From positions 1-34,689 of the IMG/VR virus record IMGVR_UViG_3300020214_002260: a stretch of DNA of 34,689 bases, one strand, 5' to 3'. Both the position numbers and the translations under genes were made by a program. The notes beneath the pieces are model-generated. The model was not told where the DNA came from and made no database searches. It was given only the letters and a program-made list of their open reading frames with translations. Within the stretch, counting starts at the first letter, position 1. Each line of letters starts with the position of its first letter. Source of the DNA: a virus. Of the stretch, positions 2,751 through 17,506 are shown piece by piece.

Positions 2751-3530
2751 TTATTTTAAATAATGCCAATAAGGAACAGCCACCGACCTTCCTTTTGCCT
2801 TATCTTGCATATCGGCTGAAAAGCCGGTGATTCCCAATTGATTGTGGATTACATCAATGTGTAAGTAGTTCGGATAGTTTTCTTTTATGCTGCGAAAGAA
2901 TATTCTTCTATCACCTATCCGAAGGATTTTTTCGATTCCGGGTTTGGCATGTTTTAGCCAAAGTGCATCTTTCTTCTGATACGATTTTATGTCGCCGTTA
3001 ATTACGTCGTCTATCGTTTTCTCGAAGCTGACGCCGACCGTATGCACACAACCGACTCTAATTAAAAGGCTGTAGAAGGAAAGCATTGGCGGGGAGTTTA
3101 GCCAACGCTTGCTACCTTCAAATAACCATACGCCGCTTTTTCTGAAATTTTCTGGTGGAAGCCAACATTCTCTGAGGATGCTCTTTTTGATCCCCAACCG
3201 TTCTTCTACTTGATTGACCAAATCCAAAGAATTTGGAATTTTTTTTCTGAATTTTGAATCGTTGGCATTAGCAACCAACAACCGAATCTTGTCCATGCAT
3301 GGTTGCGGGTCTGTGTATGGACTATATTTAAATTGGTAAATGTCGATCCATTTTTCGTGTAAACACGCATAAATCATATCTTGCAAGAAGTCTTTGCACC
3401 AAATAAATTGGTTGCATTGCTCATTATCCGCCGATAAAAAGGCAAATTCCATTCCTTTACTGTAGATTTGATAAATCTCAGCACGGGTATTTTTTTTCCA
3501 ATTGATGTACCTTTTATACCCTTCGCTCAT
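2751..3530 (-). CDS. conserved phage-type protein of unknown function, 259 aa
   Basis: I do not recognise a family. The start at ATG 3530 is chosen because GGGAGA lies about seven bases upstream; the frame is open a little further 5' without a comparable ribosome site. The protein is soluble, Trp/Tyr-rich, with SEGYKRYINWKKNTR at the N-terminus and no signal peptide or membrane segment. It is the first gene of a minus-strand operon with the amidoligase ten bases downstream, so it may supply a substrate or partner to it. It diverges from the HTH gene at 3611. Confidence 0.65.
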   Translation of the reverse strand: MSEGYKRYINWKKNTRAEIYQIYSKGMEFAFLSADNEQCNQFIWCKDFLQDMIYACLHEKWIDIYQFKYSPYTDPQPCMDKIRLLVANANDSKFRKKIPNSLDLVNQVEERLGIKKSILRECWLPPENFRKSGVWLFEGSKRWLNSPPMLSFYSLLIRVGCVHTVGVSFEKTIDDVINGDIKSYQKKDALWLKHAKPGIEKILRIGDRRIFFRSIKENYPNYLHIDVIHNQLGITGFSADMQDKAKGRSVAVPYWHYLK

Positions 3531-4772: not shown

Positions 4773-5381
4773 ATGAAAACTTTAGCTTTAGGAATCATTC
4801 TCGCAGTATGTGGATTTTTTGCATTTTACGGAATGCAAGGCGTGCAAGGCGTGCAAGGCGTTTATTCGCAACCTGTCGAAGAACCATCTCCTACACTTGA
4901 AGACTATGAAAAATTCCTGACCAAGACGGAGAATATGGCCAAGAATTTCATGGTTTTTGATTCTTGGAAAGAAATGTCTTTCAAACACAAAATAACTGGC
5001 AAAGTTACCGAATGGAAAGACTTATCCGATTATGAGAAAACGATGTTTTGTTTGACAATAGCGGAACGCACCACAGCTTATTTTACAAAACTGGATACAT
5101 TCTGGCAGAATGAACTTAAAGAATTTGACGACCCAAACCACAAGTTGGTTCCCGTTCCAAGCCCTGCGAACGAAAAGCAGAAACCAGCCACCAAAGAAGA
5201 CGTTAAAAAATATATCGAGAAATTGACTTCTATCAGGAAGAATTTTGCATTAAAATATGAAAAATTTGCAGAAAAGTCCCTAAAAACATACGAGAAAGAA
5301 ATCCCCCAGCCAGAGTGGGAAAAAATGTTGAAGACTATGCGTGACTATCACGATAAACACAAACTTATAGAAAGACAATAA
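4773..5381 (+). CDS. exported or membrane-anchored protein, 202 aa
   Basis: ATG 4773 is preferred over the upstream ATG at 4761 because GGAG (within that upstream codon region) sits seven bases before it. The N-terminus MKTLALGIILAVCGFFAFYG is a signal peptide or single membrane anchor, followed by a short GVQ repeat (three ~9-bp tandem units at 4838-4861). The rest is a charged helical domain with many Lys/Glu and no recognised family. The stop overlaps the next start as TAATG. It is likely placed in the periplasm or on the outside of the membrane. Confidence 0.6.
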   Translation: MKTLALGIILAVCGFFAFYGMQGVQGVQGVYSQPVEEPSPTLEDYEKFLTKTENMAKNFMVFDSWKEMSFKHKITGKVTEWKDLSDYEKTMFCLTIAERTTAYFTKLDTFWQNELKEFDDPNHKLVPVPSPANEKQKPATKEDVKKYIEKLTSIRKNFALKYEKFAEKSLKTYEKEIPQPEWEKMLKTMRDYHDKHKLIERQ

Positions 5382-5893
5382 TGGATTACTGCCCCTTTAC
5401 AGGCACTCCCTGTTCTTTGCCCAAAGTATATCACGTCACTGATATTTTGGGCAAAGAAATTAAACAAATGCACTTATGCCAAAATTGTTTTCTGAACCAA
5501 TATAAAAGCAAAATATATGATGAAGTTATTTCTTTCATCAACTGTCTCATTACGGAAAAAGAGAGACTTCTTTCCAAGAAGTGTAAGTGTGGATGGGGTC
5601 TTGAAGATATTGCAAAATCTGGGCGTCTTGGATGCCCTGAGTGCTATGACACCTTCAAAGAAGAGTTGAGGCCGATGATTCACAGATGCCAAAATGGTGC
5701 AACACATCATGTTGGCAAGAGGCCATCAAATTATGAACAGCTTATTGAAGCAAAACAACAAAAATTAAACGTAGAAGAACAAATCCAGACTTTACGTCTC
5801 AAAATGGCCAAGGCAGTAGAAGTCGAAAATTACGAAGTGGCTGGCGTTCTTAAAAAGAAGATAGAAGAATTACAAGTCAAAATTAACCATTAA
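5381..5893 (+). CDS. McsA-like zinc-binding protein with UVR motif
   Basis: 170 residues. The layout matches the protein-arginine-kinase activator McsA: an N-terminal Cys pair (CPFTGTPC), a second zinc module CKCGWGLEDIAKSGRLGCPEC (~67-87), the segment HHVGKRP (~109-115), and a C-terminal UVR-type coiled coil (KAVEVENYEVAGVLKKKIEE, ~145-165). In Firmicutes McsA activates McsB, which phosphorylates arginines and marks proteins for ClpCP. Related UVR domains also contact ClpC and UvrA/UvrB. No McsB gene is in the window, so the phage protein may work on a host kinase or Clp machine. It overlaps the convergent subtilase gene by 11 bases. Confidence 0.72.
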   Translation: MDYCPFTGTPCSLPKVYHVTDILGKEIKQMHLCQNCFLNQYKSKIYDEVISFINCLITEKERLLSKKCKCGWGLEDIAKSGRLGCPECYDTFKEELRPMIHRCQNGATHHVGKRPSNYEQLIEAKQQKLNVEEQIQTLRLKMAKAVEVENYEVAGVLKKKIEELQVKINH

Positions 5894-8078
5894 GTCTGAC
5901 CCATTCTTCCATTTTTCTTGGGTCAATAATTCCAAATCCCTCGAAGAATTTTTTCCCGGCAAATTCTGGGTTGCTTGTACTAATTGTATTAGACCTGAAT
6001 ATTCTTCGGTAGTCTTCAGCAGTTTCTAGCTTGATGTTGAGTTTATTATTTCTTTTGTAAGATAGTACCAATACGGCTACGCCCGTCACAAATGGATTGG
6101 CCATGCTAGTTCCTGACAGGACTGCATACCAATTATCAGGAACTGTACTAAATATTTTTACGCCGGGAGCCAAGAAGTCTAAATCATCTCCCGTACAACT
6201 AAATTTTGCCCTATCAAAATTTTCATCAATGGCACCAATGCCGATAGTTTCTGGGTAATTGGCTGGATAAAAAATACTATGAGTTTTTCCAGCATTCCCG
6301 GCAGCACAAAATACAATCACACCATTTTTATTGGCATATTGAATTGCTTTTCTTACTTGTTGAATCGGCTTAGGTGACCCCAATGACATATTGATGAAAT
6401 CTACGCCTTGATCTGCTGCCCAACGAATGCCATCGGCAACCTGCAACAAGTTGCCAGCACCTTTATGATCCAATACTTTAATTGGAATTACTTTGCATTT
6501 TGGCGCAACACCAACCATGCCAATATCGTTGTTCTCGGCGCAAATGATCCCTGTGACGTGCGTGTTTGATACAAAATGGCCTTCAGCAATATAATTGTGG
6601 TATTTTTTAACTGTGAAATCATAAAAATATCCATCATAATATTCTACTCGTATAGATTTTATACGTCTTCCAGATCTTTTGTGTTTTGGAACTATATTAG
6701 ATCGAGCTTTTTTATTTGGGTGCGCCAAATGTTTTACTATCTCATCAGTTAGGGCAGCATGAGTGATTTTGTAGCATGGTGCTGTGCTTGTTATTTTTCT
6801 ATGTGTTCTACGATCAAAGCTAGGTTTTCCTAACGATGTAGAAATCCCCAATGAATTGAGTAGACAACACATTTCTTTCCCAAAAATGTAGGATGCTGTA
6901 GTTATTCTGTTTTTGGTGTTTGATTTAGAAATACATCCATCTCCATCTATTACTCCTGCAATAAAAGCAGATTGGACTTCTAGCTCCGCCATGCCTACCC
7001 ATTGAGGTAAATTTTGACTTAAGGATTTTTTCCCTTTCTGAATGCCCAAAGCAACGAGATATTCTTTGCCAATTCCATAAACTAAAATTCTTTGTCTTTC
7101 AATTTTGTAAGCCCAATTATACGCTTTAGCTATATCCCCCACTTTCACCAAAATTTCTGGCGTGATTGAAGTTATCTCGAATCTATCATTTGACACATGA
7201 CCATCAGTGACTGCAATTCCTGCCAAATAAGCCAGATTTGTGTCAACAGTTACTTCTGCTGATGTTAAATTCCAATTAGAATGTTTACATTTTTTGCATT
7301 TACTGGGAATATTGTTTATGACATATTTTGGTTGATGGCCGCAGTTAAAACATTTCCATTTTGGTTGCAAGTTAACTTTTTGAGTTGTTCCTAAATTGCC
7401 ACAAGATTCCCCACGACCAAAAATAAATAAGTCTCCTACGCCTACTTGGTCTGCTCTTTTCCTTACAATTTCATAAACATCATGATGTTTATTTTTTGTC
7501 AAGTAAACGGGATGCCACGGAGTAAGTAGGTATGTTGCTCCTCCTTCTAGCTCAATCCTTACTACCTTACCGCTTATTGGCAATTTTTGAACAGATTCAA
7601 TTTCGGCTATAGAAGTTTTTTGACTTTCTGTATCAAGGGCATATGTAAAAATGTTTTTAAGACGTTTTATAGAATATTTGCCTTCTGGTTTTATTTCTGT
7701 TAGTTCTTCCGAATCTATTGTCTCATAAAATTGTTGAATTTCTTGAATTCCAGCATAATTTGTATGAATCATACAATTGGGAGAAACACACCCATGCCCA
7801 TTATCGTCATCCGGGGGTTTTCTCGGATTAACGAAGTTTTTACCGGGCAAAAGATTGTTAACCAAGTCCGGGTGGTCTAAATCGCAACCTGAATCCAATA
7901 CGGCGATTTTGACCCCTTCCCCTTTGGAAAGTTTCCAAGCATTAGGAAGATTAAATGCAGTGATTCCCCATCCCGCTTTTTGTTCGGCATCTTGAATAGA
8001 AATAATCTCTTCTCTTACAAAGGGAAGCAACCCGCACTTATATTTTAAATTTTCTTTTTTATTTGCTTTCTTCGGCAT
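5883..8078 (-). CDS. subtilisin-like serine protease interrupted by an intein
   Basis: 731-residue precursor from ATG 8078, chosen because it is the first ATG that begins a plausible N-terminus; it overlaps the preceding gene. The catalytic Asp is in AVLDSGCDLDHPDL (D62) and the catalytic His in DDDNGHG (H95). The oxyanion Asn region is FCAAGNAG and the catalytic Ser is in LSGTSMANPF. A 409-residue intein sits between G96 and THVTG, splitting the HGTHV motif; splicing would leave a 322-residue peptidase, the normal size of a bare S8 catalytic domain. There is no signal peptide, so it probably acts in the infected cell or as a virion protein. An unspliced precursor should be inactive because the His motif is disrupted. 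Confidence 0.9.
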   Translation of the reverse strand: MPKKANKKENLKYKCGLLPFVREEIISIQDAEQKAGWGITAFNLPNAWKLSKGEGVKIAVLDSGCDLDHPDLVNNLLPGKNFVNPRKPPDDDNGHGCVSPNCMIHTNYAGIQEIQQFYETIDSEELTEIKPEGKYSIKRLKNIFTYALDTESQKTSIAEIESVQKLPISGKVVRIELEGGATYLLTPWHPVYLTKNKHHDVYEIVRKRADQVGVGDLFIFGRGESCGNLGTTQKVNLQPKWKCFNCGHQPKYVINNIPSKCKKCKHSNWNLTSAEVTVDTNLAYLAGIAVTDGHVSNDRFEITSITPEILVKVGDIAKAYNWAYKIERQRILVYGIGKEYLVALGIQKGKKSLSQNLPQWVGMAELEVQSAFIAGVIDGDGCISKSNTKNRITTASYIFGKEMCCLLNSLGISTSLGKPSFDRRTHRKITSTAPCYKITHAALTDEIVKHLAHPNKKARSNIVPKHKRSGRRIKSIRVEYYDGYFYDFTVKKYHNYIAEGHFVSNTHVTGIICAENNDIGMVGVAPKCKVIPIKVLDHKGAGNLLQVADGIRWAADQGVDFINMSLGSPKPIQQVRKAIQYANKNGVIVFCAAGNAGKTHSIFYPANYPETIGIGAIDENFDRAKFSCTGDDLDFLAPGVKIFSTVPDNWYAVLSGTSMANPFVTGVAVLVLSYKRNNKLNIKLETAEDYRRIFRSNTISTSNPEFAGKKFFEGFGIIDPRKMEEWVRLNG
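6564..7790 (-). mobile_element. intein with LAGLIDADG homing endonuclease (in subtilase)
   Basis: 409 residues, from Cys (CVSPNC) to Asn (HFVSN), followed by Thr as the +1 residue. Splicing block B is LLTPWHPVYL (TxxH at 90-93); block F is YDFTVKKYHNYIAEG. Two dodecapeptides, LAYLAGIAVTDG (~187-198) and SAFIAGVIDGDG (~274-285), identify a LAGLIDADG homing endonuclease. A CxxC-CxxC zinc ribbon (C147, C150, C165, C168) lies before it. The penultimate residue is Ser instead of the usual His, which may slow or alter Asn cyclisation. The element spreads by cutting intein-free subtilase alleles. Confidence 0.9.
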
Positions 8079-8487
8079 TTTCCATTTGCTCCATGTTCCA
8101 TATACCGGCATTGTATTTGGCAACAATAAAGTCGATAGCAATACCGATGACTATGAGGAACATCTCCTTGATAACTGGCGCAAAAGGTTTTAACCAGATT
8201 GGGAAAGCCTCGTAGATGACATGGTCGAATAGTTTTTCCAGAACCGACATTACGGCTGCTTTTTTGTCTTTTCCATCTGGGATCAAGTCTTCAACAAACT
8301 GAATAAGTTCATCAAGGGAGTTGATGATAAATGCAGCGCCTTTTACGAGACGTGTGCGAGCTATAAAGAGCCACCCCGTAGAGGTTTCTCCCTCGCTATC
8401 CCAGCGTGTTTTTAGATCATTTAGATAGTTTTCAAGATTTTTTAGAACATCCTGAATCTCGTCTGTAGATAATTGTCTTTTTTCCAT
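8059..8487 (-). CDS. small hypothetical protein, 142 aa, possibly membrane-associated
   Basis: ATG 8487 follows AAGGAG with about five bases spacing; the GTG two codons upstream overlaps that site and is less likely. The first half is charged and helical. Near the C-terminus FAPVIKEMFLIVIGIAIDFIVAKYNAG is a hydrophobic stretch long enough for one membrane-spanning helix. No family is recognised. The end overlaps the subtilase start by 20 bases, so the two are probably co-translated. Confidence 0.55.
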   Translation of the reverse strand: MEKRQLSTDEIQDVLKNLENYLNDLKTRWDSEGETSTGWLFIARTRLVKGAAFIINSLDELIQFVEDLIPDGKDKKAAVMSVLEKLFDHVIYEAFPIWLKPFAPVIKEMFLIVIGIAIDFIVAKYNAGIWNMEQMENAEESK

Positions 8488-8579
8488 AACCACTCCTTTA
8501 GATTACCTTATATAGCCTTCGACAAATCAAAACAAGCTAACTAATTTAGAGTGTCTTTTATGGCAAAGGGATTCAATAT

Positions 8580-9440
8580 ATGTTTACAATCGTTACGGGT
8601 GGCGGAGGTTTTGTCGGAAGTAATTTGGTGGATAAGTTAGTCGATCAGGGACACGATGTTTTTGTAATTGACAATTTTGCAACGGGTTATCCACATAACG
8701 TCAATAAAAAAGCCAAGTTGGTACAAGAAGATATTCGCAACAATTTGCTTGCGGCTGATAAACTGAGAGGTCTAAAGCCAGAAGTTGTTTTCCATTGTGC
8801 TGCTTTGGCTCGAATTCAGCCCAGCTTTAAAAAGCCTGCTGAAACCATCGAAGTTAATTCTCAAGGCACCGTTCAAGTGCTTGAATATGTCAAGCATGTA
8901 GGGGCGAAGATGGTTTATGCAGGGTCGAGTTCCTTCTATTTTGATCCTCATGCCAATCCTTATGCTTATAGCAAATGGATAGGCGAAGAACATTGCAAAA
9001 TGTACAACAAAGTTTATGGTGTTCCTGTTGCTATCGCCCGTTTTTTCAACGTATACGGCCCCCGTCACGTTCAAGACGGCGAAAATGCGGCAGTATTGGG
9101 CATCTTTGAAAGACAACGCAAAAACAACGAGCCTTTAACAGTAACAGGGAATGGCGAGCAAAGACGTGATTTTTGTCATGTATTCGATATTTGTTCTGGT
9201 TTAATTGCCATGTCAAAAGATAGCTGGAATGGCGAAGTTTTCAATTTAGGCCGTGGCAACAACTACTCAATTAACGAAATCGCAGCGATGTTTAAGCCAC
9301 AGGAAATTAAGCATGTGCCCGCTCGTTCGGGGGAAGCGTGGACAACCTTGGCCGATTTGAGCTTTACTCAGAAAAAACTTGGTTGGACTCCTTCGCATAA
9401 TCTATCTGATTACGTCGATGAATTCCTAGAAACACTATAA
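8580..9440 (+). CDS. UDP-glucose 4-epimerase-like NDP-sugar epimerase
   Basis: 286 residues, the usual extended-SDR length or slightly short. The NAD site is VTGGGGFVGSN at residues 5-15. The catalytic pair is in YAYSK (YxxxK), with Ser upstream in AGSSSFY. ARFFNVYGPR and the C-terminal substrate-domain motif TGNGEQRRDFCHVFD are typical of GalE/WbpP/RmlB-like enzymes. It would interconvert NDP-hexoses or hexuronates. It is ten bases from the UDP-sugar dehydrogenase gene, so a two-step route (oxidation at C6 plus C4 epimerisation, giving a galacturonate-like donor) is plausible. AAGGGA lies before the ATG. Confidence 0.88.
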   Translation: MFTIVTGGGGFVGSNLVDKLVDQGHDVFVIDNFATGYPHNVNKKAKLVQEDIRNNLLAADKLRGLKPEVVFHCAALARIQPSFKKPAETIEVNSQGTVQVLEYVKHVGAKMVYAGSSSFYFDPHANPYAYSKWIGEEHCKMYNKVYGVPVAIARFFNVYGPRHVQDGENAAVLGIFERQRKNNEPLTVTGNGEQRRDFCHVFDICSGLIAMSKDSWNGEVFNLGRGNNYSINEIAAMFKPQEIKHVPARSGEAWTTLADLSFTQKKLGWTPSHNLSDYVDEFLETL

Positions 9441-9449
9441 GGTGTAAAA

Positions 9450-10463
9450 ATGAAAAGTGTCGGCATTGTAGGTTATGGCTACGTTGGCAAGGCCATGTTT
9501 AAATTCTTTGAAAAACATCACAGAACTCTGGGCTATGATCCTTGGTATACAGAACGTGAAGCCGAATACCTTGTGCAAGATAAAGATGAATTTAATCGTT
9601 GTCGTTGCGATGTAGGTGTTGTATGTGTTCCTACGCCCATGTCGGAATCTGGACGCTGTACTACATCTATAGTCGAAGAAGTGGTCGATTGGCTGGATAC
9701 TCCTTTGATAATTATAAAGTCAACTGTGGAGCCGGGCACGACTGATCGTTTGAAACAAAAGACGGGCAAACGCATTGTTTTTGCCCCTGAATATTGTGGT
9801 GAATCTAGTTATTGGTCGCCATATCTTTGGGATCGTGAAGTAAAAGAAACTCCCTTCTTTATTTTTGGCGGCGATCCCAAAGATACGTCTGAGGCTGTAG
9901 ATTTGTATTTCCCTATCACCGGGCCAGTTAAAACATATCGACAAACATCGGCAAAGGCTGCTGAGATGGCTAAGTACATGGAAAATTCTTTCTATGCTAC
10001 AAAGATTACTTTTTGTTATGAGATGGCCTGTATCTGTAAAAAGGCCGGGATTGATTACAACGAGGCCAGAGAACTTTGGCTACTCGATCCACGAATCAAT
10101 CCAATGCACACAGCGGTTTTCGCCCAAAACGACAATCCTTTCGGCGGCAAGTGTGTATTGCCTGAAGCTGTTGTTAAATTGCAAAATGGCGACAACGTAA
10201 CTATAGCTGACTTATATGATCGTTGGCAAATGGGCGAAAAATTAGCAATTGAATCTTGTGATTTCAATATTGAGAAAAATGATTTTAAGTCTGTTTGTTT
10301 GGTTACTAAAAACAAAGTTGACGAAGAACTCGTGGTATTTGATACTGAAAATGGGGAATTTTCTTGTACAAGTGAACATTTAATGCCGGTAATGCGTGAT
10401 GGTAAAAAAATTATAATTATGGCAAAAGATGTTCTAAAAACTGATCTTTTATTTTCTAAATAA
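9450..10463 (+). CDS. UDP-glucose/GDP-mannose dehydrogenase N-extein fused to N-half of a split intein
   Basis: Residues 1-234 are the dehydrogenase: GIVGYGYVGKA NAD-binding loop, CVPTPMSESG, KSTVEPGTT, FAPEYCGES, and the central-domain helix EMAKYMENSFYATKI. The extein ends at NPFGGK, exactly before the catalytic Cys of the family's GGxC(F/L)PKD motif. Residues 235-337 (10152-10460) are an N-intein: Cys1, block B FSCTSEHLMPV, ending in LLFSK and a stop. The active enzyme can arise only by trans-splicing with the product of 11276-11542. Splicing would give 277 residues, lacking the C-terminal UDP-binding domain of classical ~400-residue enzymes; short forms like this may be a phage variant. 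Confidence 0.88.
   Translation: MKSVGIVGYGYVGKAMFKFFEKHHRTLGYDPWYTEREAEYLVQDKDEFNRCRCDVGVVCVPTPMSESGRCTTSIVEEVVDWLDTPLIIIKSTVEPGTTDRLKQKTGKRIVFAPEYCGESSYWSPYLWDREVKETPFFIFGGDPKDTSEAVDLYFPITGPVKTYRQTSAKAAEMAKYMENSFYATKITFCYEMACICKKAGIDYNEARELWLLDPRINPMHTAVFAQNDNPFGGKCVLPEAVVKLQNGDNVTIADLYDRWQMGEKLAIESCDFNIEKNDFKSVCLVTKNKVDEELVVFDTENGEFSCTSEHLMPVMRDGKKIIIMAKDVLKTDLLFSK
10152..10460 (+). mobile_element. N-terminal half of split intein
   Basis: 103 codons starting with Cys (CVLPEAVVKL) and containing the splicing block B Thr-x-x-His (CTSEHL). The length, the early stop and the missing endonuclease domain match natural split inteins of the 'fractured gene' type seen in phage-like metagenomic sequence. 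Its partner is 11276-11410. The two halves are separated by an independent endonuclease gene. Confidence 0.88.
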
Positions 10464-10466
10464 AAT

Positions 10467-10490
10467 AGGCAAGCACTTTCCGCCAAAGGG
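10467..10490 (-). repeat. inverted copy of the uninterrupted intein insertion site
   Basis: Read on the minus strand, these 24 bases encode PFGGKCLP, the exact amino-acid sequence formed when the two dehydrogenase exteins (10137-10151 and 11411-11419) are joined. 20 of 24 bases agree and all four differences are synonymous. The copy lies between the N-intein stop and the endonuclease ATG, and its end (CCAAAGGG on the plus strand) doubles as that gene's ribosome site. It is the size and position expected of a homing-endonuclease recognition site. Confidence 0.8.
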
Positions 10491-10493
10491 TTT

Positions 10494-11279
10494 ATGATTA
10501 AAAAGTTTATAAAAAATGATATTGTTATTGATTTTAATGAAGCAACTCAACACACAACAATTCTTGAGTGTATTTGCGATAAGTGTGGCAAAGAATACGA
10601 AAGATTAAATTATAATCACAACAAAATGAAAAAAAACGTATTGTGTGATAGAGATTATTGTTGTAAATGTTGGACAGGCATTTTGAATTCGAGAAAAGAA
10701 TATAGGGAAAAAATGTCTTGTTCAATTAAAAAAATGAGAGAAAATAATCCTGATTTGTCAGTCAAAATTTCTGAAACTTCTAAATCAAGACGCATAAATT
10801 CTGGTGACAAAAATGGGATGAAGCGTGCAGAGTCCAAAGTAAAAGTTTCATCTACACGGATCAAATTGTTTCAAGAAAATCCAGAGCTTAGAATGCAACT
10901 TTCTAAACAAACACGACAGGCTTGGGTTGATGGTAAATTTGACGGCGTTCGAGTCGGACAATGTAAATGGTTTGATTATTATGCCAAGAACGGCACTGTA
11001 TACAAAGTGCAGGGAACATGGGAATTAGCTTTCATTAAATGGCTTGATGAAAATAATTTTTCTTTCTTGTGCCATCGTGGAAGACTTGCGTACAAGTTGC
11101 ATGGACAAAATAAGAACTATTATCCAGATTTTTGGGTAACAGAATGGGGTTGTTATGTAGATGTCAAATGCAAGCATTTTTACAATGAAGAAAAATTTAT
11201 TGCAATTGAAAATTGCAATAAATGTAAAATAAAGGTTCTCTTTAAAGAAGACCTTTTAAAATTAGGAGTGTTGTTGTGA
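10494..11279 (+). CDS. homing endonuclease, NUMOD3 plus Vsr/PD-(D/E)XK-like
   Basis: 261 residues. An N-terminal zinc-finger-like region (CICDKCGKEYE, CCKCWTG) is followed by a basic helical NUMOD3-like DNA-binding segment (ISETSKSRRINSGDKNGMKR, ~97-116). The C-terminal nuclease has WELAFIKWLDEN (~177-188), then YYPDFWV (~214-220) and YVDVKCKHF (~226-234); the D...D/ExK pattern is the PD-(D/E)XK fold found in Vsr-like homing enzymes. Its place between two split-intein genes is the 'fractured gene' arrangement. It should cut intein-less dehydrogenase alleles near GGK|C. The stop overlaps the next GTG start. Confidence 0.82.
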   Translation: MIKKFIKNDIVIDFNEATQHTTILECICDKCGKEYERLNYNHNKMKKNVLCDRDYCCKCWTGILNSRKEYREKMSCSIKKMRENNPDLSVKISETSKSRRINSGDKNGMKRAESKVKVSSTRIKLFQENPELRMQLSKQTRQAWVDGKFDGVRVGQCKWFDYYAKNGTVYKVQGTWELAFIKWLDENNFSFLCHRGRLAYKLHGQNKNYYPDFWVTEWGCYVDVKCKHFYNEEKFIAIENCNKCKIKVLFKEDLLKLGVLL

Positions 11280-11410
11280 GAACTATAAAAATTATCAATA
11301 TAGAAAAAACAAATCATAATGATTATGTTTATAATTTGGAATTAGAAAGTGGGTCTAATTCTGATGATTTGTTTTGGATTGAACAAAGAACAGGTATTGT
11401 AACACATAAT
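11276..11410 (+). mobile_element. C-terminal half of split intein
   Basis: 45 codons ending in Thr-His-Asn before Cys+1. This is the length typical of natural split C-inteins (~35-45 residues). It complements the N-half at 10152-10460. Confidence 0.88.
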
Positions 11411-11542
11411 TGCCTGCCTAAAGATATAACCGCCTTAGCAACTTGGGCAAAAGAAGAACTTGGATATGAACCGGAGCTATTATGGGAAGTGTTAGAAAGC
11501 AACAAACGAATCGGCCAGCACCGAAGGACACAAAGGGGTTAA
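11276..11542 (+). CDS. C-half of split intein fused to UDP-sugar dehydrogenase C-extein
   Basis: 88 residues from GTG 11276 (AGGAG seven bases upstream; GTGA overlap with the endonuclease stop). Residues 1-45 are a C-intein: block F YVYNLELES, block G ending GIVTHN with the usual His-Asn. Residue 46 is Cys, both the +1 splicing nucleophile and the catalytic Cys of the dehydrogenase (CLPKDITAL). The extein continues for 43 residues (TWAKEELGYEPELLWEVLESN) and stops at 11542. It has no enzymatic role by itself and must be ligated to the 9450-10463 product. Confidence 0.88.
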   Translation: MRTIKIINIEKTNHNDYVYNLELESGSNSDDLFWIEQRTGIVTHNCLPKDITALATWAKEELGYEPELLWEVLESNKRIGQHRRTQRG

Positions 11543-11561
11543 AGGTACCCATACAATCTTC

Positions 11562-11855
11562 ATGAAGAAAAATGGGAAGATTATGAGGTTGTCAGTGTCG
11601 TCAATGGCTTCCAAAAGAAAGAGTTGCCACATAATCGGCTGCAAATCTTTCTTGATCCCCACAGCGGTACACATCAGTATAGATCGCATTGAATACAAAG
11701 GTAAATGCTGGGAGGATTTTGCAAGAGATATGCTAAAACGGGCGAGGGAGGAAGACTCCATCTTTCGCCTTTTCGGTAATTCTTGGGAAATAGAAAAAGA
11801 AAAAGAAAAAGACTGGCAGGCTTTGGAAGACTTATTCAAAGAGATGAAAACATGA
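11562..11855 (+). CDS. hypothetical protein, probable frameshifted gene
   Basis: A 97-codon frame. Its second half (EYKGKCWEDFARDMLKRARE and EKDWQALEDLFKEMKT) looks coding and its stop overlaps the next start as ATGA, so this frame is real at the 3' end. The first half reads unnaturally. Over 11543-11690 the frame of the preceding extein gene (EDYEVVSVVNGFQKKE, RLQIFLDPHSG) looks more protein-like. One base lost or gained near 11680-11690 would join the two halves. The ATG at 11562 has only a weak ribosome site. No family is recognised. Confidence 0.5.
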   Translation: MKKNGKIMRLSVSSMASKRKSCHIIGCKSFLIPTAVHISIDRIEYKGKCWEDFARDMLKRAREEDSIFRLFGNSWEIEKEKEKDWQALEDLFKEMKT

Positions 11856-12385
11856 GTTACTATCGAGAACAACTTGAATCTTATCTCAAGCTCTTGGACG
11901 TAAATGCCGATTTAGTTATCGACGTGGGTGGGGCACAAAAGCCAGCCAAAGGTCGCACCAAAAGCTGGAACATAAAAGATTACGCTGTCTTAGACTTACC
12001 TGAATATGACTTAGATAAACCTCTAGCCTATAATGCTCAGGCAGACGTGGTTTTTTGCCTAGAAGTATTTGAATACTTAATCATCCCAACAATGGCTATG
12101 ACAAACATAGCCAACCTACTAAAGCCGGGCGGCAAAGCCTATGTGACATTTCCTTTTGTTTATCCATTGCATAACGAAGTAGAATTCGACAGCTTGAGAT
12201 ACACGAAAAGTGGCATAGTGAGACTCGCAGCACATGCAGGACTAAACATTGAAAAAATAGTCGAAAGAAAAACCAACACAGGTTCTTTAGTTAAATATTA
12301 TTCAGAAGATGGCATGAGGGCAGCAAAAGGTCACAATCATTCTGTAACTGGATTCATTGTGACCTTTAAAAAATCAGAACAATGA
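11852..12385 (+). CDS. SAM-dependent methyltransferase (class I)
   Basis: 177 residues from ATG 11852, coupled by ATGA to the preceding gene. Motif I is VIDVGGAQKP (~24-33), the acidic end of motif II lies around YAVLDLPEYD, and ADVVFCLEVFEYL plus LLKPGGKAYVTFPFVYPLH give motifs IV-VI. It resembles small type-11/12 methyltransferases found in glycan or capsule clusters. Placed between the dehydrogenase and glycosyltransferases, it may methylate a sugar or a lipid/protein acceptor; the substrate is unproven. Confidence 0.8.
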   Translation: MSYYREQLESYLKLLDVNADLVIDVGGAQKPAKGRTKSWNIKDYAVLDLPEYDLDKPLAYNAQADVVFCLEVFEYLIIPTMAMTNIANLLKPGGKAYVTFPFVYPLHNEVEFDSLRYTKSGIVRLAAHAGLNIEKIVERKTNTGSLVKYYSEDGMRAAKGHNHSVTGFIVTFKKSEQ

Positions 12386-12441
12386 CTTGATATATTTTAA
12401 CATATCCATTTTAGTGTCGCTGTTGAAAAGGTTTTGTAACT

Positions 12442-13392
12442 TTACTTCCCATATAACCTCTCGATCAGTTCTTTGTATTTCAGCCCTACATTCTCTAAAG
12501 AAGTATAAATTCGGAGCTTTTCTCCAAAGGCTTTGGTTTCTTTCCAGTATTCATATGAGAACCATCGGCCCGTATTGTTTGGTGCTACTATATCAAAACC
12601 CCTTTGTCTAAAGTATTCGGCTGAATAACTTTCTTTGTTTACAGCGAAGGGAATCCCAGAGGCTATGTATTTTTGGGCCTTTGTGGGAGGCTTATAGTTT
12701 TGGTTGAATTGATCGGTCATTTTAATGTCAATTGCGGCCTTAGCCTCTACCATCATCTCGTGTTGTAATCTTTCTGACCAAGGATAAGCGTCAATTCCTT
12801 CGATAGATTTTGTTCCTTCTGGGATGGTCAATTTCATGCCTATGTTAGATGCAAAAACATTTGCCGCCAGTCTTGCACGTTCATTGTCTATATCTGACAA
12901 TATTTTTATCTCATTTTTGATCGGGTGCTTTCTAATCCATTCGAGCAAGTAAGGAATGTACTGACAACCACCAATCCAAATAATGTAACCTCTTTCTTTA
13001 TATTCTGACATTTCTAGTAGAGCATATTTGTTGTTATGTTCTACGAAATGTATTTCTTTTTTGTAGCTTTTGAATATTGGCAACAATCTCTCGGAGTGCA
13101 AGAGGATCATATCGCACAGCCCAAGAAACGGAGCATCAGCCCGGATATGCTTTACTTCCTGATAAAAGTCAATCGGGCAATAAATGACCTTGATCTTTTT
13201 ATCTTTCAGTTTTGCGATTTTTTGTGCCGGACAATTTTGCTTGATAATTACGACAGCATCAGCTTCTGGAATGTTATCAAAGCTATTGAAAAAGACTATG
13301 TTGAAGTATTTGGCCAGTTCCCTTGCTGTATCAAATCCAACCCATCCCCAAGATGGAACGTCTCTTTCAGGTCCGAATGCAAGTGTTTTCAT
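12442..13392 (-). CDS. glycosyltransferase, GT-B-like
   Basis: 316 residues. The N-terminal half has a Rossmann-like organisation (GPERDVPSWGWVGFDTARELAKYF). The C-terminal half contains PPTKAQKYIASGIPFAVN, which fits the donor-binding motif of GT-B enzymes where a Lys/Glu pair and a 'xxSGxPxxxN' segment contact the nucleotide sugar. The first-half acceptor region is divergent. It is translationally coupled (ATGA) to the glycosyltransferase upstream, so both are likely made together and act on the same glycan. I cannot tell the sugar. Confidence 0.7.
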   Translation of the reverse strand: MKTLAFGPERDVPSWGWVGFDTARELAKYFNIVFFNSFDNIPEADAVVIIKQNCPAQKIAKLKDKKIKVIYCPIDFYQEVKHIRADAPFLGLCDMILLHSERLLPIFKSYKKEIHFVEHNNKYALLEMSEYKERGYIIWIGGCQYIPYLLEWIRKHPIKNEIKILSDIDNERARLAANVFASNIGMKLTIPEGTKSIEGIDAYPWSERLQHEMMVEAKAAIDIKMTDQFNQNYKPPTKAQKYIASGIPFAVNKESYSAEYFRQRGFDIVAPNNTGRWFSYEYWKETKAFGEKLRIYTSLENVGLKYKELIERLYGK

Positions 13393-15215
13393 TTTCTGGA
13401 CTTTTTATGAAAGTCTCTGTGAAATAAATAGTTTTCTGCTGGCAAGTGGCCGGGGAAATATCTGAATTTAATTCCCATCTTTCTAGTCAAATAAGCGAAA
13501 CTTATTTGATCCCTCTTTGATCCATTTTGAATTTCCTTCCACCATGCTTCATTGAACTCTTTAATTTGATCTGTGTGTCTACGCAACAAAATGGTGCATT
13601 CCCCCAGACCAGCATTAGATGGGTGCTCATCTTTTGTATACCTTTGTATTTGTTCCCTAATTACATTAGGATCATCCAGTCTTCGTTGCATACACACATT
13701 GGCTTCTTGATATATGCAATGCCTCTCAGAGTGCTTAAACAAAGCCATGTCCGAATCTGCAAGGTAAAGCTCAATGAGTCTTTCTACGGAAAAAGGAAAT
13801 TCAATCGTAATTGATCCATCAATCCACAAACTGTAGAGTTTATCTGGGAAATATTTGTGTGGAAGTATCTTGTGGATTTTAGCATTTCTGTTCGGATCGG
13901 GAAAACCTTTATTTATTTGGCGGCAATTCCATGTTTTTGATTCCATTGGTGCTTCAAGAAACGCAACGAAATCTACTCCCCTTGCTGTAGGAGGTTGTTC
14001 TTTTAGATTGTCATAATCGTTGGTTCTGTTCGTTATTGCTGTGTACACGACCACCGATTTTGGGTCTACTGTAAAATCTGGTTTTTTTGATCTATTCTCT
14101 TTCAAATATTCATGAAGAATTTTTGTTGCCACCCATTTTCTGTGGAATAAATTGCGGTTCTCGCCCATAAAGGCATGAGCAGCACTATGCGAGTGTCCAC
14201 CTGAGTGAAAGATTTTGGAATCCGGGGTAAAAAGAACTTTTTTGCCTTGAGTATGAATTCTCATGCAAAGATCAGCATCTTCCCAATAACCTATTCTGTA
14301 TTCTGTATCAAACCCTTTTATTTTTTGAAATAGAATACTAGGTATCATAAAGCAAGCCCCCGTGACCATTTCTACTTCATGCGTGGTTAAGAGTTCGGCG
14401 GGGGCGTTACTTAACCGAAATGCACGAGAAAGGTGCTTCTTTTGCCATATGTGTTTGCCTGCGTGCAAGAAAGCTCCCTGCCCCCAATCCCATTCTGAAC
14501 CGCACGAATCAATCATATCTTCGTGACGGTGACGCAAATGGAGATTGCCCACAATGCCGACTTCTTCGTTTTGAAGACAGTCATACATTGGTTTTATCCA
14601 ATTGGGAGTTACTGTGGTATCTGCGTTTAGAAATACCGCATATTTGCCTCTGGCCACTTTAAATCCGCTGTTGCAAGCATTAGCGAACCCAGAGTTTCTG
14701 CCCGTGAAAACAATTTTCCCAACGGGGCCAGTTAGCTCAGTTTTTCTTTCTTCCCAAGCCGCTAGTATTCCTTGATATGTTTTTTGAGGACAACAATCAT
14801 CGACATATATTATTTCTTTAGTCAATCCATCGTCGGACAAATCCCAAGACTTAATTTGTTCAGCAATTTCTGACCGGCTTTTATAACAAGGAACAATTAT
14901 AGACACATCAACATTTTCATCTTTTGTAAACCAATCAGGAGTTATGTGAATTCTGTAATCTGGTGGGACAAAAGGCTTTTTTGTTGTTTGAATGCCTACT
15001 TTATTCGGCCTGTTGATGTTGTTGGTGAATCTGCTTTGTTTTCTCCCACGGACGGTTCTTTGAGTTACTACTTTGTTTGAAGTAGTCTGTGTCCCGCCCA
15101 CTTGTGACAAAAGCTGACTTACAGGAATACCGCCACCGGAAGAAGGCTTTTTAGCAAGAGCTTTCTTCATCATTTGCGATCTGGAAATCCCTTGATTTTG
15201 TCTTCTTTCTTTCAC
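13389..15215 (-). CDS. two-domain glycosyltransferase: GT2 plus DUF616-like domain
   Basis: 608 residues from GTG 15215 (AAGGA seven bases upstream). Residues ~1-85 are basic and low-complexity. Residues ~100-340 are a GT-A family 2 domain: VSIIVPCYKSRSEI, IIYVDDCCP, NADTTVTPNW (DxD-like) and GYWEDADLCMRI (ED base motif). From about residue 395 a second domain fits DUF616/TOD1-like glycosyltransferases: VVVYTAITN, LYSLWIDGSI, LFKHSERHCIYQEA and an RRHTDQIKEFNEAWW segment. Two transferase domains in one chain suggest stepwise addition of two sugars. It is the largest gene of the glycan island. Confidence 0.85.
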   Translation of the reverse strand: MKERRQNQGISRSQMMKKALAKKPSSGGGIPVSQLLSQVGGTQTTSNKVVTQRTVRGRKQSRFTNNINRPNKVGIQTTKKPFVPPDYRIHITPDWFTKDENVDVSIIVPCYKSRSEIAEQIKSWDLSDDGLTKEIIYVDDCCPQKTYQGILAAWEERKTELTGPVGKIVFTGRNSGFANACNSGFKVARGKYAVFLNADTTVTPNWIKPMYDCLQNEEVGIVGNLHLRHRHEDMIDSCGSEWDWGQGAFLHAGKHIWQKKHLSRAFRLSNAPAELLTTHEVEMVTGACFMIPSILFQKIKGFDTEYRIGYWEDADLCMRIHTQGKKVLFTPDSKIFHSGGHSHSAAHAFMGENRNLFHRKWVATKILHEYLKENRSKKPDFTVDPKSVVVYTAITNRTNDYDNLKEQPPTARGVDFVAFLEAPMESKTWNCRQINKGFPDPNRNAKIHKILPHKYFPDKLYSLWIDGSITIEFPFSVERLIELYLADSDMALFKHSERHCIYQEANVCMQRRLDDPNVIREQIQRYTKDEHPSNAGLGECTILLRRHTDQIKEFNEAWWKEIQNGSKRDQISFAYLTRKMGIKFRYFPGHLPAENYLFHRDFHKKSRK

Positions 15216-15218
15216 TGC

Positions 15219-15296
15219 TTATTCCTTACTGTTGTGGTGCCCACTACCACCCATACCACCGGGCGGAGTGGGAGAAGAAGCGTCTTCTATAAGCAT
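15219..15296 (-). CDS. possible 25-aa peptide
   Basis: A short frame (MLIEDASSPTPPGGMGG...) between the head-cargo gene and the glycosyltransferase, ending four bases before that gene's GTG. Its last codons contain the AAGGA that serves the GTG start, so translation of this frame could couple to the next gene. No convincing ribosome site of its own is present. It is listed at low confidence. Confidence 0.25.
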   Translation of the reverse strand: MLIEDASSPTPPGGMGGSGHHNSKE

Positions 15297-15315
15297 TTTT
15301 AAAGAATTTTAAAAA

Positions 15316-15768
15316 TCATGCCCCCGGCGCTGGTGGCATGTGTGGGCTTGGTGGCATGTGTGGGCTTGGTGGCATGTGTGGGCTTGGTTGCTGTGGTTGC
15401 TGTGGTTGCTGTGGTTGCATTGCGCCTTTTACAATTTTCATCAATGCCGTCTGAGTAATCTGCGGCAATGCTGAGTGAACCTTATCAATTATCATGGAAA
15501 CCACTTCTATGCCAGCTTGCTTATTTTTCAACTTCGCCACTTTCGGCATCAAGCGATCCAACAAAGTCATTAGAGATTGACTAATGTGTTTTGTTTCTTC
15601 TTCCTCTTGCTGATTTTGTTGTTCATTTTCAGTAGTAGCGTTGCCTAAAGCTGGCGGTACATGTGAATTTCCGGCCATTTGGGTTGTTCCACCGGGTTGC
15701 ATTTGGTTAGCGTTTGACGGAACTCCTTCCATTTCCATGATCCATTCGTTAAATTTCTTGATTGCCAT
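15316..15768 (-). CDS. head-cargo candidate with prohead-address-like N-terminus and Pro/Gln repeats
   Basis: 150 residues from ATG 15768 (TAATG overlap with the preceding gene). The N-terminus MAIKKFNEWIMEMEG resembles the T4 capsid-targeting sequence, with a possible (I/L)xE cleavage point. The middle is helical (LMTLLDRLMPKVAKLKNK). The C-terminus is repetitive: QPQQPQ from a 9-bp tandem repeat, then SPHMPP three times from a perfect 18-bp repeat. No enzyme motif. A packaged internal or scaffold-like protein is inferred. Confidence 0.6.
   Translation of the reverse strand: MAIKKFNEWIMEMEGVPSNANQMQPGGTTQMAGNSHVPPALGNATTENEQQNQQEEEETKHISQSLMTLLDRLMPKVAKLKNKQAGIEVVSMIIDKVHSALPQITQTALMKIVKGAMQPQQPQQPQQPSPHMPPSPHMPPSPHMPPAPGA
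15332..15421. repeat. tandem repeats, 18 bp x3 then 9 bp x~4
   Basis: Three perfect 18-bp units at 15332-15385 are followed by 9-bp GGTTGCTGT-type units to about 15421. They are in frame with the gene and encode the SPHMPP and QQP repeats. Perfect identity between units suggests recent copy-number change. Confidence 0.9.
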
Positions 15769-16154
15769 TATTGTCCTTCCCACCCTTTAGGTGCGGTAAT
15801 TATGTCTTGGGGTAATTGTTCGCCATCTAAACCTTTGAAATCACTTGATTTCATGGTTGATTTGCCGCCAACGCCTGCGGAATCCAATGCTCCATAAAAA
15901 GCAGAGAGCGTAGCAATAATGATTGCTTGTGCTAATTTATCTCTTTCCTCTGGCGGCACGTCTCTGAAACTTTGTATATTAGGATCACCAGCTTTCAGAG
16001 TGTTTGTGTATTGATCTTGTATTCTTTCAATTCTGGGTCGGACCATATTGATGATCTTGGGATCGACTGGCTTAGTTCCAGTGCCCCATATTTTCTTGGT
16101 CTGTTCCCAATCTGGGTCATTGCGAGACATTCGCCATTCATTTATTGATTTCAT
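15768..16154 (-). CDS. small protein with prohead-address-like N-terminus, 128 aa
   Basis: The start ATG 16154 overlaps the previous stop as ATGA. The N-terminus MKSINEWRMSRNDPDWEQ has the aromatic/Glu/Trp pattern shared by several proteins in the window. The rest is helical with a Gly-rich bend (SAGVGGKSTMKSSDFKG), no Cys cluster and no enzyme motif. It lies in a five-gene minus-strand run of similar small proteins, which suggests joint late expression and packaging. Function unknown. Confidence 0.6.
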   Translation of the reverse strand: MKSINEWRMSRNDPDWEQTKKIWGTGTKPVDPKIINMVRPRIERIQDQYTNTLKAGDPNIQSFRDVPPEERDKLAQAIIIATLSAFYGALDSAGVGGKSTMKSSDFKGLDGEQLPQDIITAPKGWEGQ

Positions 16155-16492
16155 GGGTTTCCTTTCTCTAAATTAGTAACGTCTTCTTCTTTATCTTTCG
16201 GTAGCCCTGTGTGAATTATCTTGCGATTCGATGAGCTATCCGGGGTTTGATCTGCCTCTTTTACTTTATCTAATTCTTCTTTGACTTTTTGGTGCCATGA
16301 GGCAATTTTAGTCACTGGTATATCAAGTAACTCAGAGAGGCCGCTTGAGTTATTGATTACCGCAAGAAAATCATCCCAGAAATCTTCACGAACACCAATT
16401 CCCGTCCGTATAGCAGAACTAGCCTTGCTTTCGCTGGCAGAATTGCTTTTGGAGGCTTCCATATTTTCCCAAAGTTTCTGGAATGAAATCAT
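16151..16492 (-). CDS. small protein with prohead-address-like N-terminus, 113 aa
   Basis: Three in-frame starts exist (16525, 16510, 16492). The last is preferred: AAAGAG lies about seven bases upstream, it falls just after the previous stop, and it gives MISFQKLWENME, which matches the shared address pattern with LWE as possible cleavage point. Ser/Ala-rich linker (~17-30), then a helical body (REDFWDDFLAVINN, WHQKVKEELDKVKEAD). No family is recognised. Confidence 0.55.
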   Translation of the reverse strand: MISFQKLWENMEASKSNSASESKASSAIRTGIGVREDFWDDFLAVINNSSGLSELLDIPVTKIASWHQKVKEELDKVKEADQTPDSSSNRKIIHTGLPKDKEEDVTNLEKGNP

Positions 16493-16496
16493 GCGA

Positions 16497-16721
16497 TTAC
16501 TCTTTTTCATTTTTACAAGTTCCACTCTTCTTTTTTCTTCCTAGAAATAGCTTTTCAGGATCAAATTCCACTTGATCCGCTTTTTTATCAGACAACACAT
16601 ATTTGCTCCTAGCACCTGTGCGTCCGAAATCCAAGTCGGCATTGGAACGGTTATCCCAAATCTCGCCTGCACCTTCTGGTGAAGTTTTACTCAGCCATTC
16701 TTTAAATGAAAAATGGAACAT
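16497..16721 (-). CDS. small protein with prohead-address-like N-terminus, 74 aa
   Basis: 74 residues starting MFHFSFKEWLSKTSPEG, then acidic and basic segments (SNADLDFGRTGARSKY, ending in GRKKKSGTCKNEKE). The FxFKEWL opening matches the shared motif. The basic tail could bind packaged DNA. It is close-packed between neighbours in the same strand. Confidence 0.6.
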   Translation of the reverse strand: MFHFSFKEWLSKTSPEGAGEIWDNRSNADLDFGRTGARSKYVLSDKKADQVEFDPEKLFLGRKKKSGTCKNEKE

Positions 16722-16736
16722 AGTTTATTTAGTCTT

Positions 16737-16964
16737 TTAGACACTTCTTTCCCTAATTTTTAGCCACTCTTCAAATGACTGTTTTTTCTTCTTTTTTTTC
16801 TCTGGAAGACCGTCATGTTTCGTGGCCGCAAAATCTTCGGCGTCTTTCTTGCTGATGCTTTTTGCAATCTTTTTAACTTCGGGGCTGGCATTCTTCAATT
16901 TACCCTTCTGGGCAGCATGAACCATACCAAATAACCTCTGTTGTGACTTGCTTTTAGCTGGCAT
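16737..16964 (-). CDS. DUF3008 family protein
   Basis: 75 residues that match the phage-associated DUF3008 pattern well: PAKSKSQQRLFGMVHAAQKG, KNASPEVKKIAKSISKKDAE and DFAATKHDGLPEKKKKK. Very basic, with no known activity. A good GGAGG precedes the ATG at 16964. The tail adds SFEEWLKIRE, the same aromatic-Glu-Trp-Leu motif that other proteins here carry at the N-terminus, so the motif may have been appended to the C-terminus. Confidence 0.85.
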   Translation of the reverse strand: MPAKSKSQQRLFGMVHAAQKGKLKNASPEVKKIAKSISKKDAEDFAATKHDGLPEKKKKKKQSFEEWLKIRERSV

Positions 16965-17000
16965 AATAACCTCCGATGTAGTTATTTAGATAATGCCAAC

Positions 17001-17037
17001 AAAAAAGGCCATAGGAATATTCCCGTGGCCTTCTTTT
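17001..17037. terminator. bidirectional intrinsic terminator
   Basis: Stem AAGGCCA (17005-17011) pairs with TGGCCTT (17026-17032), with an inner self-complementary GGAATATTCC. Flanking A-rich and T-rich runs allow it to work on either strand, most usefully on the minus strand ahead of 16964. Confidence 0.75.
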
Positions 17038-17072
17038 ACCCCGATTGAACTTTTAGTCGGCTAAGGTTGAGA

Positions 17073-17109
17073 CACGAAGCCGCTCCCCTTTAGGGGGGCG
17101 GTAGTTCAC
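17073..17109. repeat. palindromic element resembling an IS200/IS605 right end
   Basis: CACGAAG precedes a 9-bp stem (CCGCTCCCC/GGGGGGCGG, TTTA loop, 17080-17101), followed by TAGTTCAC. The 'AAGCC-stem with TTTA loop-GGTAGTTCAC' layout is like right ends of OrfB/TnpB-type elements. No transposase is nearby. The 11-mer CACGAAGCCGC recurs at 18849. A hairpin at 17041-17060 (CCGATT/AGTCGG) lies just before it. Confidence 0.5.
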
Positions 17110-17342
17110 CACATTTTGTTAAGAGCAGCAGGGCCGAAATTTGAAGCGGCAAATCCCATTGCGGAGTTATCGGGGGCATCCGCATCATATTGTGGGGCTT
17201 TCCATTGACTCCATCGCACCACTCCTGCGATTTTTGCAGCTTTCGTCGTTGCAAAGTCATTTCGTAATTTTGAAAGTTTTTGTTGATTTGCGAAGTTTTT
17301 GCACGTCCACCATTGGGTTTGCCATCTGGGCGTCCTCTGCAA
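17106..17342 (-). CDS. hypothetical protein, start uncertain
   Basis: The C-terminal part (KAAKIAGVVRWSQWKAPQYD, then NSAMGFAASNFGPAALNKMW) has natural composition and codon use, unlike the other frames here. The 5' end overlaps the upstream gene by 86 bases and would need a TTG start at 17342 without a clear ribosome site. Either the start is internal and non-canonical, or a frameshift separates it from the upstream gene. The stop lies just before the palindromic element. No family is recognised. Confidence 0.4.
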   Translation of the reverse strand: MQRTPRWQTQWWTCKNFANQQKLSKLRNDFATTKAAKIAGVVRWSQWKAPQYDADAPDNSAMGFAASNFGPAALNKMW

Positions 17343-17490
17343 AAGAATCGTAAACTTTGTCTAAATTCTCTTCGGAATGATTACCGCAGTGCCAAATACT
17401 TTTGTCCTCTAGGTAAACTCCGCAGTTGAGTACGTTTTTCTTCGAGAACTTAGTTGCTCTGTTTTTGCAATCCGGTACTTGACATATCAT
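17257..17490 (-). CDS. small zinc-binding-type protein, 77 aa
   Basis: ATG 17490 has AAGGAG eight bases upstream, 17 bases after the Dam methylase stop. The protein carries CQVPDCKN, NCGVYLE and WHCGNHSEEN, giving a CxxxxC...C...CxxH set that could bind one zinc. The C-terminal half is polar. It is likely co-transcribed with the methylase. Function unknown. Confidence 0.6.
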   Translation of the reverse strand: MICQVPDCKNRATKFSKKNVLNCGVYLEDKSIWHCGNHSEENLDKVYDSFAEDAQMANPMVDVQKLRKSTKTFKITK

Positions 17491-17506
17491 TGTTGAGGCT
17501 CCTTCA

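What the first reader, a model, noticed from the sequence alone, without database searches (positions are those of the whole stretch)
10467..10490. Inverted 24-bp copy of the intein-free target site beside the endonuclease gene
The minus strand encodes PFGGKCLP, the exact extein junction. 20/24 bases match and all four changes are synonymous, so it comes from a protein-coding allele rather than chance. It spans the insertion point K|C, abuts the endonuclease ATG and supplies its ribosome site. It may be a relic of the enzyme's capture from the antisense strand of another dehydrogenase gene, a decoy or self-target, or a recombination seed. I know of no description of this arrangement.
Basis: seen in the sequence. 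Interest (0 to 1): 0.88.

Follow-up and report, generated by a model that had tools for sequence, protein, structure and literature searches.

The report
Homing-endonuclease gene carrying its target copy
A selfish DNA-cutting gene inside a split phage gene carries, just before its start codon, a copy of the DNA sequence it is expected to cut; related viruses keep the same arrangement and the copy follows the target as it changes, so it is most likely a built-in off-switch (operator) by which the enzyme limits its own production.

Summary
In detail: window 10467-10490 (minus strand) reads CCCTTTGGCGGAAAGTGCTTGCCT = PFGGKCLP, 20/24 identical to the joined extein junction and beyond chance (5e-5 expected in the whole window). 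It is not a private relic. In public viral contigs a target-site copy lies just upstream of the endonuclease ATG in nearly all of 22 fractured dehydrogenase loci and in 9 of 13 free-standing loci of the same endonuclease family, which has a T7-endonuclease-I-like catalytic domain. In UDP-glucose dehydrogenase loci the copy is always inverted (consensus GGTNANTGTTTNCC). In a nested clade that targets another dehydrogenase, it is a direct copy of that gene's junction. Each copy matches its own target better than those of relatives (permutation p=5e-5; 4e-4 non-redundant). Beside free-standing endonucleases the resident gene is usually altered at the site while the copy stays canonical. Most likely the copy is an operator bound by the endonuclease to repress its own gene, as shown for T4 I-TevI (PMC2988022). 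Binding and repression are inferred; promoter evidence is moderate. The antisense-gene relic idea is not supported. The class is known; new are its presence in split inteins and free-standing genes, this nuclease family, and its tracking of the target.

The parts
9450..10151 (+). N-extein: N-terminal part of a UDP-glucose/GDP-mannose-type dehydrogenase, ending ...NDNPFGGK
   Evidence: Pfam UDPG_MGDP_dh 2e-14 and UDPG_MGDP_dh_N 1.7e-8
10152..10463 (+). IntN (N-terminal split-intein half, CVLPEAVV...LLFSK) and stop codon
   Evidence: Weak Pfam Intein_splicing match (E=0.003, below cut-off); homologous IntN in the related loci
10461..10466 (+). TAAAAT, -10-like box abutting the copy; possible promoter element, unproven
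   Evidence: Read from sequence. AT-rich -10-like boxes abut the copy in related loci; TATAAT-like enrichment over shuffles p=0.03 for inverted-copy loci. The generic scan found no sigma-70 promoter here above chance
10467..10490 (-). Inverted copy of the uninterrupted target site (PFGGKCLP); candidate endonuclease operator
   Evidence: 20/24 to the joined junction; conserved in relatives
10468..10481 (-). 14-bp core GGAAAGTGCTTGCC, corresponding to the 22-locus consensus GGTNANTGTTTNCC
   Evidence: Position counts; cross-clade PWM test
10494..11279 (+). Endonuclease gene: N-terminal zinc-binding part (C28, C31), NGMK motif, C-terminal T7-endonuclease-I-like nuclease domain (E177, D212, D223, K225)
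   Evidence: Profile of 26 homologues matches PDB 1m0d, E=1.1e-7; Pfam Phage_endo_I in 16 of 26 members; these residues invariant
11276..11410 (+). IntC (C-terminal split-intein half, ending THN)
   Evidence: Homologous IntC in related loci
11411..11542 (+). C-extein CLPKDITAL..., end of the dehydrogenase
   Evidence: Pfam UDPG_MGDP_dh match positions 62-93

Best explanation
The 24-bp element is a binding site (operator) for the endonuclease encoded just downstream. It mimics the uninterrupted extein junction, the presumed homing site. The enzyme binds it next to or over the start of its own transcript and represses its own gene, limiting DNA cutting and interference with expression of the split dehydrogenase gene around it. 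Because the same DNA-recognition surface reads both sites, the operator must change when the target changes. Shown here: the copy exists, is position-conserved, is not chance, and co-varies with the target. Inferred: that the endonuclease binds it, that binding represses transcription, and that it is not efficiently cut.
For: (1) Window copy beyond chance. (2) Same element in the same place in related loci: a PWM trained on one half of the endonuclease tree finds it in the other half at rank 1-13 of about 5,000-22,000 positions, mostly rank 1-5, on the minus strand and just upstream of the ATG; one failure, L066. (3) Own-target tracking: mean best match 14.1/21 to own junction, 12.4 to other UGD junctions, 10.1 to the other dehydrogenase's junctions; permutation p=5e-5, non-redundant 4e-4, second family alone 0.035. 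The residue before Cys tracks (K->K; H->H/Q; T->S/A; mostly A/G->A/G/T in the second family). (4) Target switch: the clade inserted in another dehydrogenase (support 100/99, nested beside UGD-targeting enzymes) carries a copy of that gene's junction, direct instead of inverted. (5) The copy is kept with free-standing endonucleases beside intact UGD, where the resident gene is usually changed at the site: CFP kept in 2/12 with endonuclease versus 41/52 without, Fisher p=1e-4. (6) Promoter-like sequence near the copy: TATAAATA (at most 1 mismatch) in 6/7 direct-copy loci, p=0.003; -10-like in 18/24 inverted-type loci, p=0.03. (7) Precedent: I-TevI operator upstream of its ORF, 15/20 identical to the homing site, overlapping the late promoter, bound equally, cut about 100-fold less; [quoted passage not shown]
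Against: No binding, cleavage or expression data exist for this family. No clear promoter is predicted in the window. In the UGD loci the copy lies at the start of the transcript/RBS, in the other clade upstream of the TATAAATA box, so the repression geometry differs. Four free-standing relatives lack a recognisable copy (L019, L022, L028, L058). L013 and L053 are degenerate and L066/L069 weak by own-target score. The own-target test may be partly confounded by base composition; the residue-level tracking and the resident-allele contrast are not corrected for relatedness. In L034 and L057 the copy is not closer to foreign alleles than to the resident one.
Confidence: 0.62

Rival explanations
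1. The copy is bound by the endonuclease but not to repress transcription: a decoy that titrates the enzyme, a cleavable self-target that limits or mobilises the gene, or a tether that joins donor and recipient DNA.
For: All comparative evidence for an endonuclease-bound site fits these too; promoter evidence is only moderate.
Against: One decoy site is a poor sink; cutting its own genome between IntN and the endonuclease gene would be costly; the fixed place just upstream of the ATG and the promoter-like neighbours point to regulation; repression has a direct precedent in I-TevI.
Confidence: 0.2
2. RNA-level control: the inverted copy in the endonuclease leader pairs with the dehydrogenase mRNA or with the IntN junction of the same transcript and masks the start region.
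For: In UGD loci the leader is antisense to the target mRNA and covers the RBS region.
Against: The other clade has the copy in direct orientation; copy-target differences do not favour G-U-compatible changes (0.14 per G/T site versus 0.21 incompatible per A/C site); the copy resembles the joined site more than the IntN junction (84 versus 64 of 117).
Confidence: 0.05
3. Relic of a past event (capture from the antisense strand of another dehydrogenase gene, or a repair scar), without present function.
For: In the window all four differences are synonymous.
Against: Conserved motif in an otherwise unalignable spacer between endonucleases about 50% identical; non-synonymous copies; own-target tracking; independent direct copy after a target switch.
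Confidence: 0.06
4. The site is recognised by a protein other than the endonuclease, such as a phage or host regulator.
For: Binding by the endonuclease was not tested.
Against: An unrelated regulator would not be expected to follow the extein junction sequence or to switch with the target gene.
Confidence: 0.04

Closest known systems
I-TevI operator/autorepression (phage T4 td intron; also putative I-TevII and I-TevIII operators), PMC2988022
   Same: Short sequence similar to the enzyme's homing site directly upstream of its ORF, near promoter sequence (there 15/20 identity, here 20/24); encoded inside a self-splicing element of a phage gene
   Different: There intron-encoded nucleases of T4, three cases, binding and repression shown for I-TevI; here split inteins and free-standing genes, T7-endonuclease-I-like nuclease, about 30 loci, inverted or direct copy, tracking of the target, no wet-lab proof
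Fractured genes with split inteins and an intervening endonuclease ORF (Dassa et al. 2009; from own knowledge and reference lists, paper not held)
   Same: N-extein-IntN ORF, endonuclease ORF, IntC-C-extein ORF in that order
   Different: Dassa's new family is EDxHD/Vsr-like (own knowledge; EDxHD described in PMC3943268); here T7-endonuclease-I-like, with a target copy at the endonuclease start. gp41-1 loci tested as a control have a GIY-YIG-like ORF and no copy
T7 endonuclease I (phage Holliday-junction resolvase; PDB 1m0d, 1fzr)
   Same: Catalytic domain by profile match E=1.1e-7; E/D/DxK residues conserved
   Different: Extra N-terminal zinc-binding and helical parts with an NGMK motif; gene sits at and appears to target a specific gene site rather than acting as a general resolvase
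Free-standing homing endonucleases that target an intron or intein insertion site (collaborative homing, F-CphI)
   Same: Relatives here sit next to an intact target gene whose site is altered
   Different: F-CphI uses an Endo VII-type motif (PMC6083498 abstract); no operator copy is described for it in what was read

Membership tests
I-TevI-type autorepressor operator | Sequence similar to the enzyme's homing site immediately upstream of its ORF | tested here: met
   20/24 in the window; same in nearly all 22 fractured loci. That the junction is the homing site is inferred from intein position
I-TevI-type autorepressor operator | Site overlaps or adjoins the promoter of the endonuclease gene | tested here: inconclusive
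   Late-promoter-like TATAAATA in 6/7 direct-copy loci (p=0.003) and -10-like boxes in 18/24 inverted-type loci (p=0.03); no confident promoter in the window
I-TevI-type autorepressor operator | Endonuclease binds the site and represses transcription | not testable with these tools
   Needs EMSA and reporter assay
I-TevI-type autorepressor operator | Site is cut much less than the homing site | not testable with these tools
   Needs cleavage assay
Fractured gene with split intein | N-extein-IntN, endonuclease and IntC-C-extein on three separate ORFs | tested here: met
   Window 9450-10463, 10494-11279, 11276-11542; homologous order in 21 other loci
Fractured gene with split intein | Canonical junctions (Cys1, terminal His-Asn, Cys+1) | tested here: met
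   IntN starts C; IntC ends THN; C-extein starts C
Fractured gene with split intein | Trans-splicing yields the joined dehydrogenase | not testable with these tools
   Biochemistry needed
EDxHD (Vsr-like) homing endonuclease of fractured genes | EDxHD/Vsr-type nuclease domain | tested here: inconclusive
   No Vsr model was matched; the profile matches T7 endonuclease I instead, with E, D, DxK residues invariant. No direct comparison with I-Bth0305I was made
T7 endonuclease I-like PD-(D/E)XK nuclease | Profile similarity with conserved catalytic residues | tested here: met
   1m0d E=1.1e-7; E177, D212, D223, K225 invariant in 26; PF05367 in 16/26 members though not in the window protein alone
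T7 endonuclease I-like PD-(D/E)XK nuclease | Same fold in a structural comparison | tested here: inconclusive
   AF2 monomer pLDDT 89, pTM 0.47; Foldseek found no significant PDB match
   Direct copies in a nested clade; conserved motif; tracks own target

The most novel reading that the evidence does not exclude
Carrying an operator that mimics the enzyme's own homing site is a recurrent, independently evolved feature of mobile endonuclease genes (split inteins and free-standing genes as well as T4 introns). When an endonuclease lineage switches target it acquires a new copy of the new site, so the specificity of an uncharacterised homing endonuclease can be read from the DNA just upstream of its gene.
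Probability: 0.5. Interest if true: 0.75.

Novelty: new variant of a known kind. Interest (0 to 1): 0.62.

Why it matters
Homing-endonuclease autorepression by a homing-site-like operator rests on one proven case (I-TevI) and two putative ones in T4. This family gives about 30 comparative cases in another nuclease superfamily, in split inteins and in free-standing genes, with co-variation between operator and target and a replacement of the operator after a target switch. It would let one predict cleavage sites of unknown endonucleases from sequence, including orphans such as L059 whose target gene is gone, and it gives a ready set of site pairs to test how binding is separated from cleavage.

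Tried and rejected
RNA pairing: no excess of wobble-compatible changes, and the copy resembles the joined site rather than the IntN junction. Relic of antisense capture: see above. Genome-contig scan with the endonuclease alignment: no relatives confirmed. Foldseek on the predicted monomer: nothing significant. gp41-1 fractured loci, used to ask whether all fractured genes carry such a copy: none found, best matches at background level. Blind search for site copies upstream of more distant relatives (L071-L113): method too weak, it did not recover the positive controls; the starred hits were mostly tRNA or low-complexity sequence. Pfam, PHROG and PDB searches with the single window protein gave only weak hits. 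Dassa 2009 and Taylor 2011 are not held, so whether those papers mention spacer motifs is unchecked.

Full report
Observation. The window holds a fractured UDP-glucose/GDP-mannose-type dehydrogenase gene: N-extein plus IntN (9450-10463), a separate endonuclease ORF (10494-11279) and IntC plus C-extein (11276-11542). Between IntN and the endonuclease ATG, minus strand 10490-10467 reads PFGGKCLP and matches the joined extein junction at 20 of 24 bases. Chance expectation is 5e-5 for the whole window; no shuffle and no other stretch of the window reaches it.

Relatives. Three viral-contig scans with the endonuclease and its alignments gave 22 non-identical fractured loci with alignable junctions, counting the window: 15 in UDP-glucose dehydrogenase (UGD; junction G[FYW]GGxC[FL]P, PFGGKC in the window's own group) and 7 in another NAD-dependent dehydrogenase (junction GDGGxCHP). 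They also gave free-standing relatives next to an intact UGD and one orphan (L059) beside a UGD scrap. No relative was confirmed in the genome collection.

The copy is general. In the UGD loci an inverted copy sits between the IntN stop codon and the endonuclease ATG, in register with Cys+1, reaching into the first codon in L014, L038, L039 and L041; in L011 it lies inside the readthrough 3' end of the IntN ORF. In the other dehydrogenase a direct copy sits at or just after the IntN stop (GDNGTCYV, GDSGACYV, RDNGACYV and so on). L013 is degenerate, L053 weak, L066 and L069 weak by own-target score. Free-standing relatives L005, L020, L021, L023, L026, L030, L034 and L057 and orphan L059 carry the inverted copy; L019, L022, L028 and L058 do not. 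The 22 inverted copies give GGTNANTGTTTNCC with strong conservation at GG, A, TG, TT and less at CC. As a cross-check, a PWM from the free-standing clade plus L032/L066 found the copy in the other clade at rank 1-13 among thousands of positions, and the reverse training worked for all but L066.

The copy tracks the target. Scored against all 22 junctions, a UGD spacer matches its own junction best on average (14.1/21), other UGD junctions less (12.4) and the other gene's junctions least (10.1). Permutation gives p=5e-5, 4e-4 on a non-redundant subset, and 0.035 within the second family. If the copy had arisen once and drifted freely, own and foreign targets should match equally well. Base composition may contribute. 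The window and its close relative L010 show two parallel changes in target and copy (AAG to AAA, TGC to TGT).

Target switch. In a maximum-likelihood tree of 33 endonucleases the second-dehydrogenase group is one clade (100/99) nested among UGD-targeting enzymes, and its copies are of the new gene's junction, in direct orientation. Fractured L032/L066 lie inside the free-standing clade, so the gene moved between contexts with the copy kept.

Self versus non-self. Where the endonuclease stands beside an intact UGD, the resident site usually lacks the CFP codon context: P kept in 2/12 with the endonuclease, 41/52 without, Fisher p=1e-4, not corrected for relatedness. In 5 of 8 such loci most foreign CFP alleles are closer to the copy than the resident allele is; L026 is about even, L034 and L057 are not. 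This fits a resident gene that evades the enzyme and a copy that keeps the recognised sequence.

The enzyme. The profile of 26 homologues matches T7 endonuclease I (PDB 1m0d, E=1.1e-7); E177, D212, D223 and K225 are invariant. The AlphaFold model is confident locally (pLDDT 89, pTM 0.47), but Foldseek gives no significant match. T7 endonuclease I is a homodimer (own knowledge), which would suit the partly palindromic core.

Mechanism. The best reading is an operator through which the endonuclease limits its own expression. [quoted passage not shown] also PMC3943268). Promoter support here is moderate: TATAAATA-like boxes in 6/7 direct-copy loci (p=0.003) and -10-like boxes in 18/24 inverted-type loci (p=0.03), but no confident promoter in the window. 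Antisense RNA control is disfavoured. The antisense-capture relic is not supported.

Negative control. The same analysis on gp41-1 fractured loci, which carry an unrelated GIY-YIG-like ORF, found no target copy, so the arrangement is not a property of every fractured gene and the method does not find copies everywhere.

Verdict. A real, conserved, target-tracking element; a new variant of the known homing-endonuclease operator. Binding and repression remain to be shown.

Noticed in passing
L194-L241 (gp41-1 split-intein loci), spacer between IntN and the GIY-YIG-like ORF: An inverted repeat of about 11 bp (GTAAGTTATAC ... GTATAACTTAC) flanks a TATAAATA box just before the endonuclease ATG in most loci, with some arm changes (e.g. 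L194, L233); looks like a hairpin or dyad operator control of a different kind.
   Followed up: no
L072, L075, L077, L079, L080, L081, L083, L085, L094, L102, L112: More distant relatives of the nuclease sit inside viral tRNA gene clusters; in L072, L080, L081, L094 and L102 the next tRNA gene is tRNA-Phe(gaa), which could be a target gene.
   Followed up: partly
L149 ~3440-3510 and L059 3100-3260: Decay states: L149 appears to keep the copy with only a C-terminal scrap of the endonuclease; L059 keeps endonuclease and copy (GFQVKCFP) with only a scrap of the dehydrogenase.
   Followed up: no
window 5883-8141 (-): Subtilisin-like protease ORF that appears to contain an in-frame intein with LAGLIDADG-like motifs; a second intein in the same contig.
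   Followed up: no
window ~11520-11860: Remnant of a glycosyltransferase gene that is full length in the relative L002 (ORF 2423-3430); internal deletion and frameshift in the window.
   Followed up: no
L013 3440-3486: Fractured locus with an unusual junction (GFGGLCFS) and a degenerate copy (GAAACCTGTTTATC); possibly an enzyme whose specificity has drifted.
   Followed up: partly
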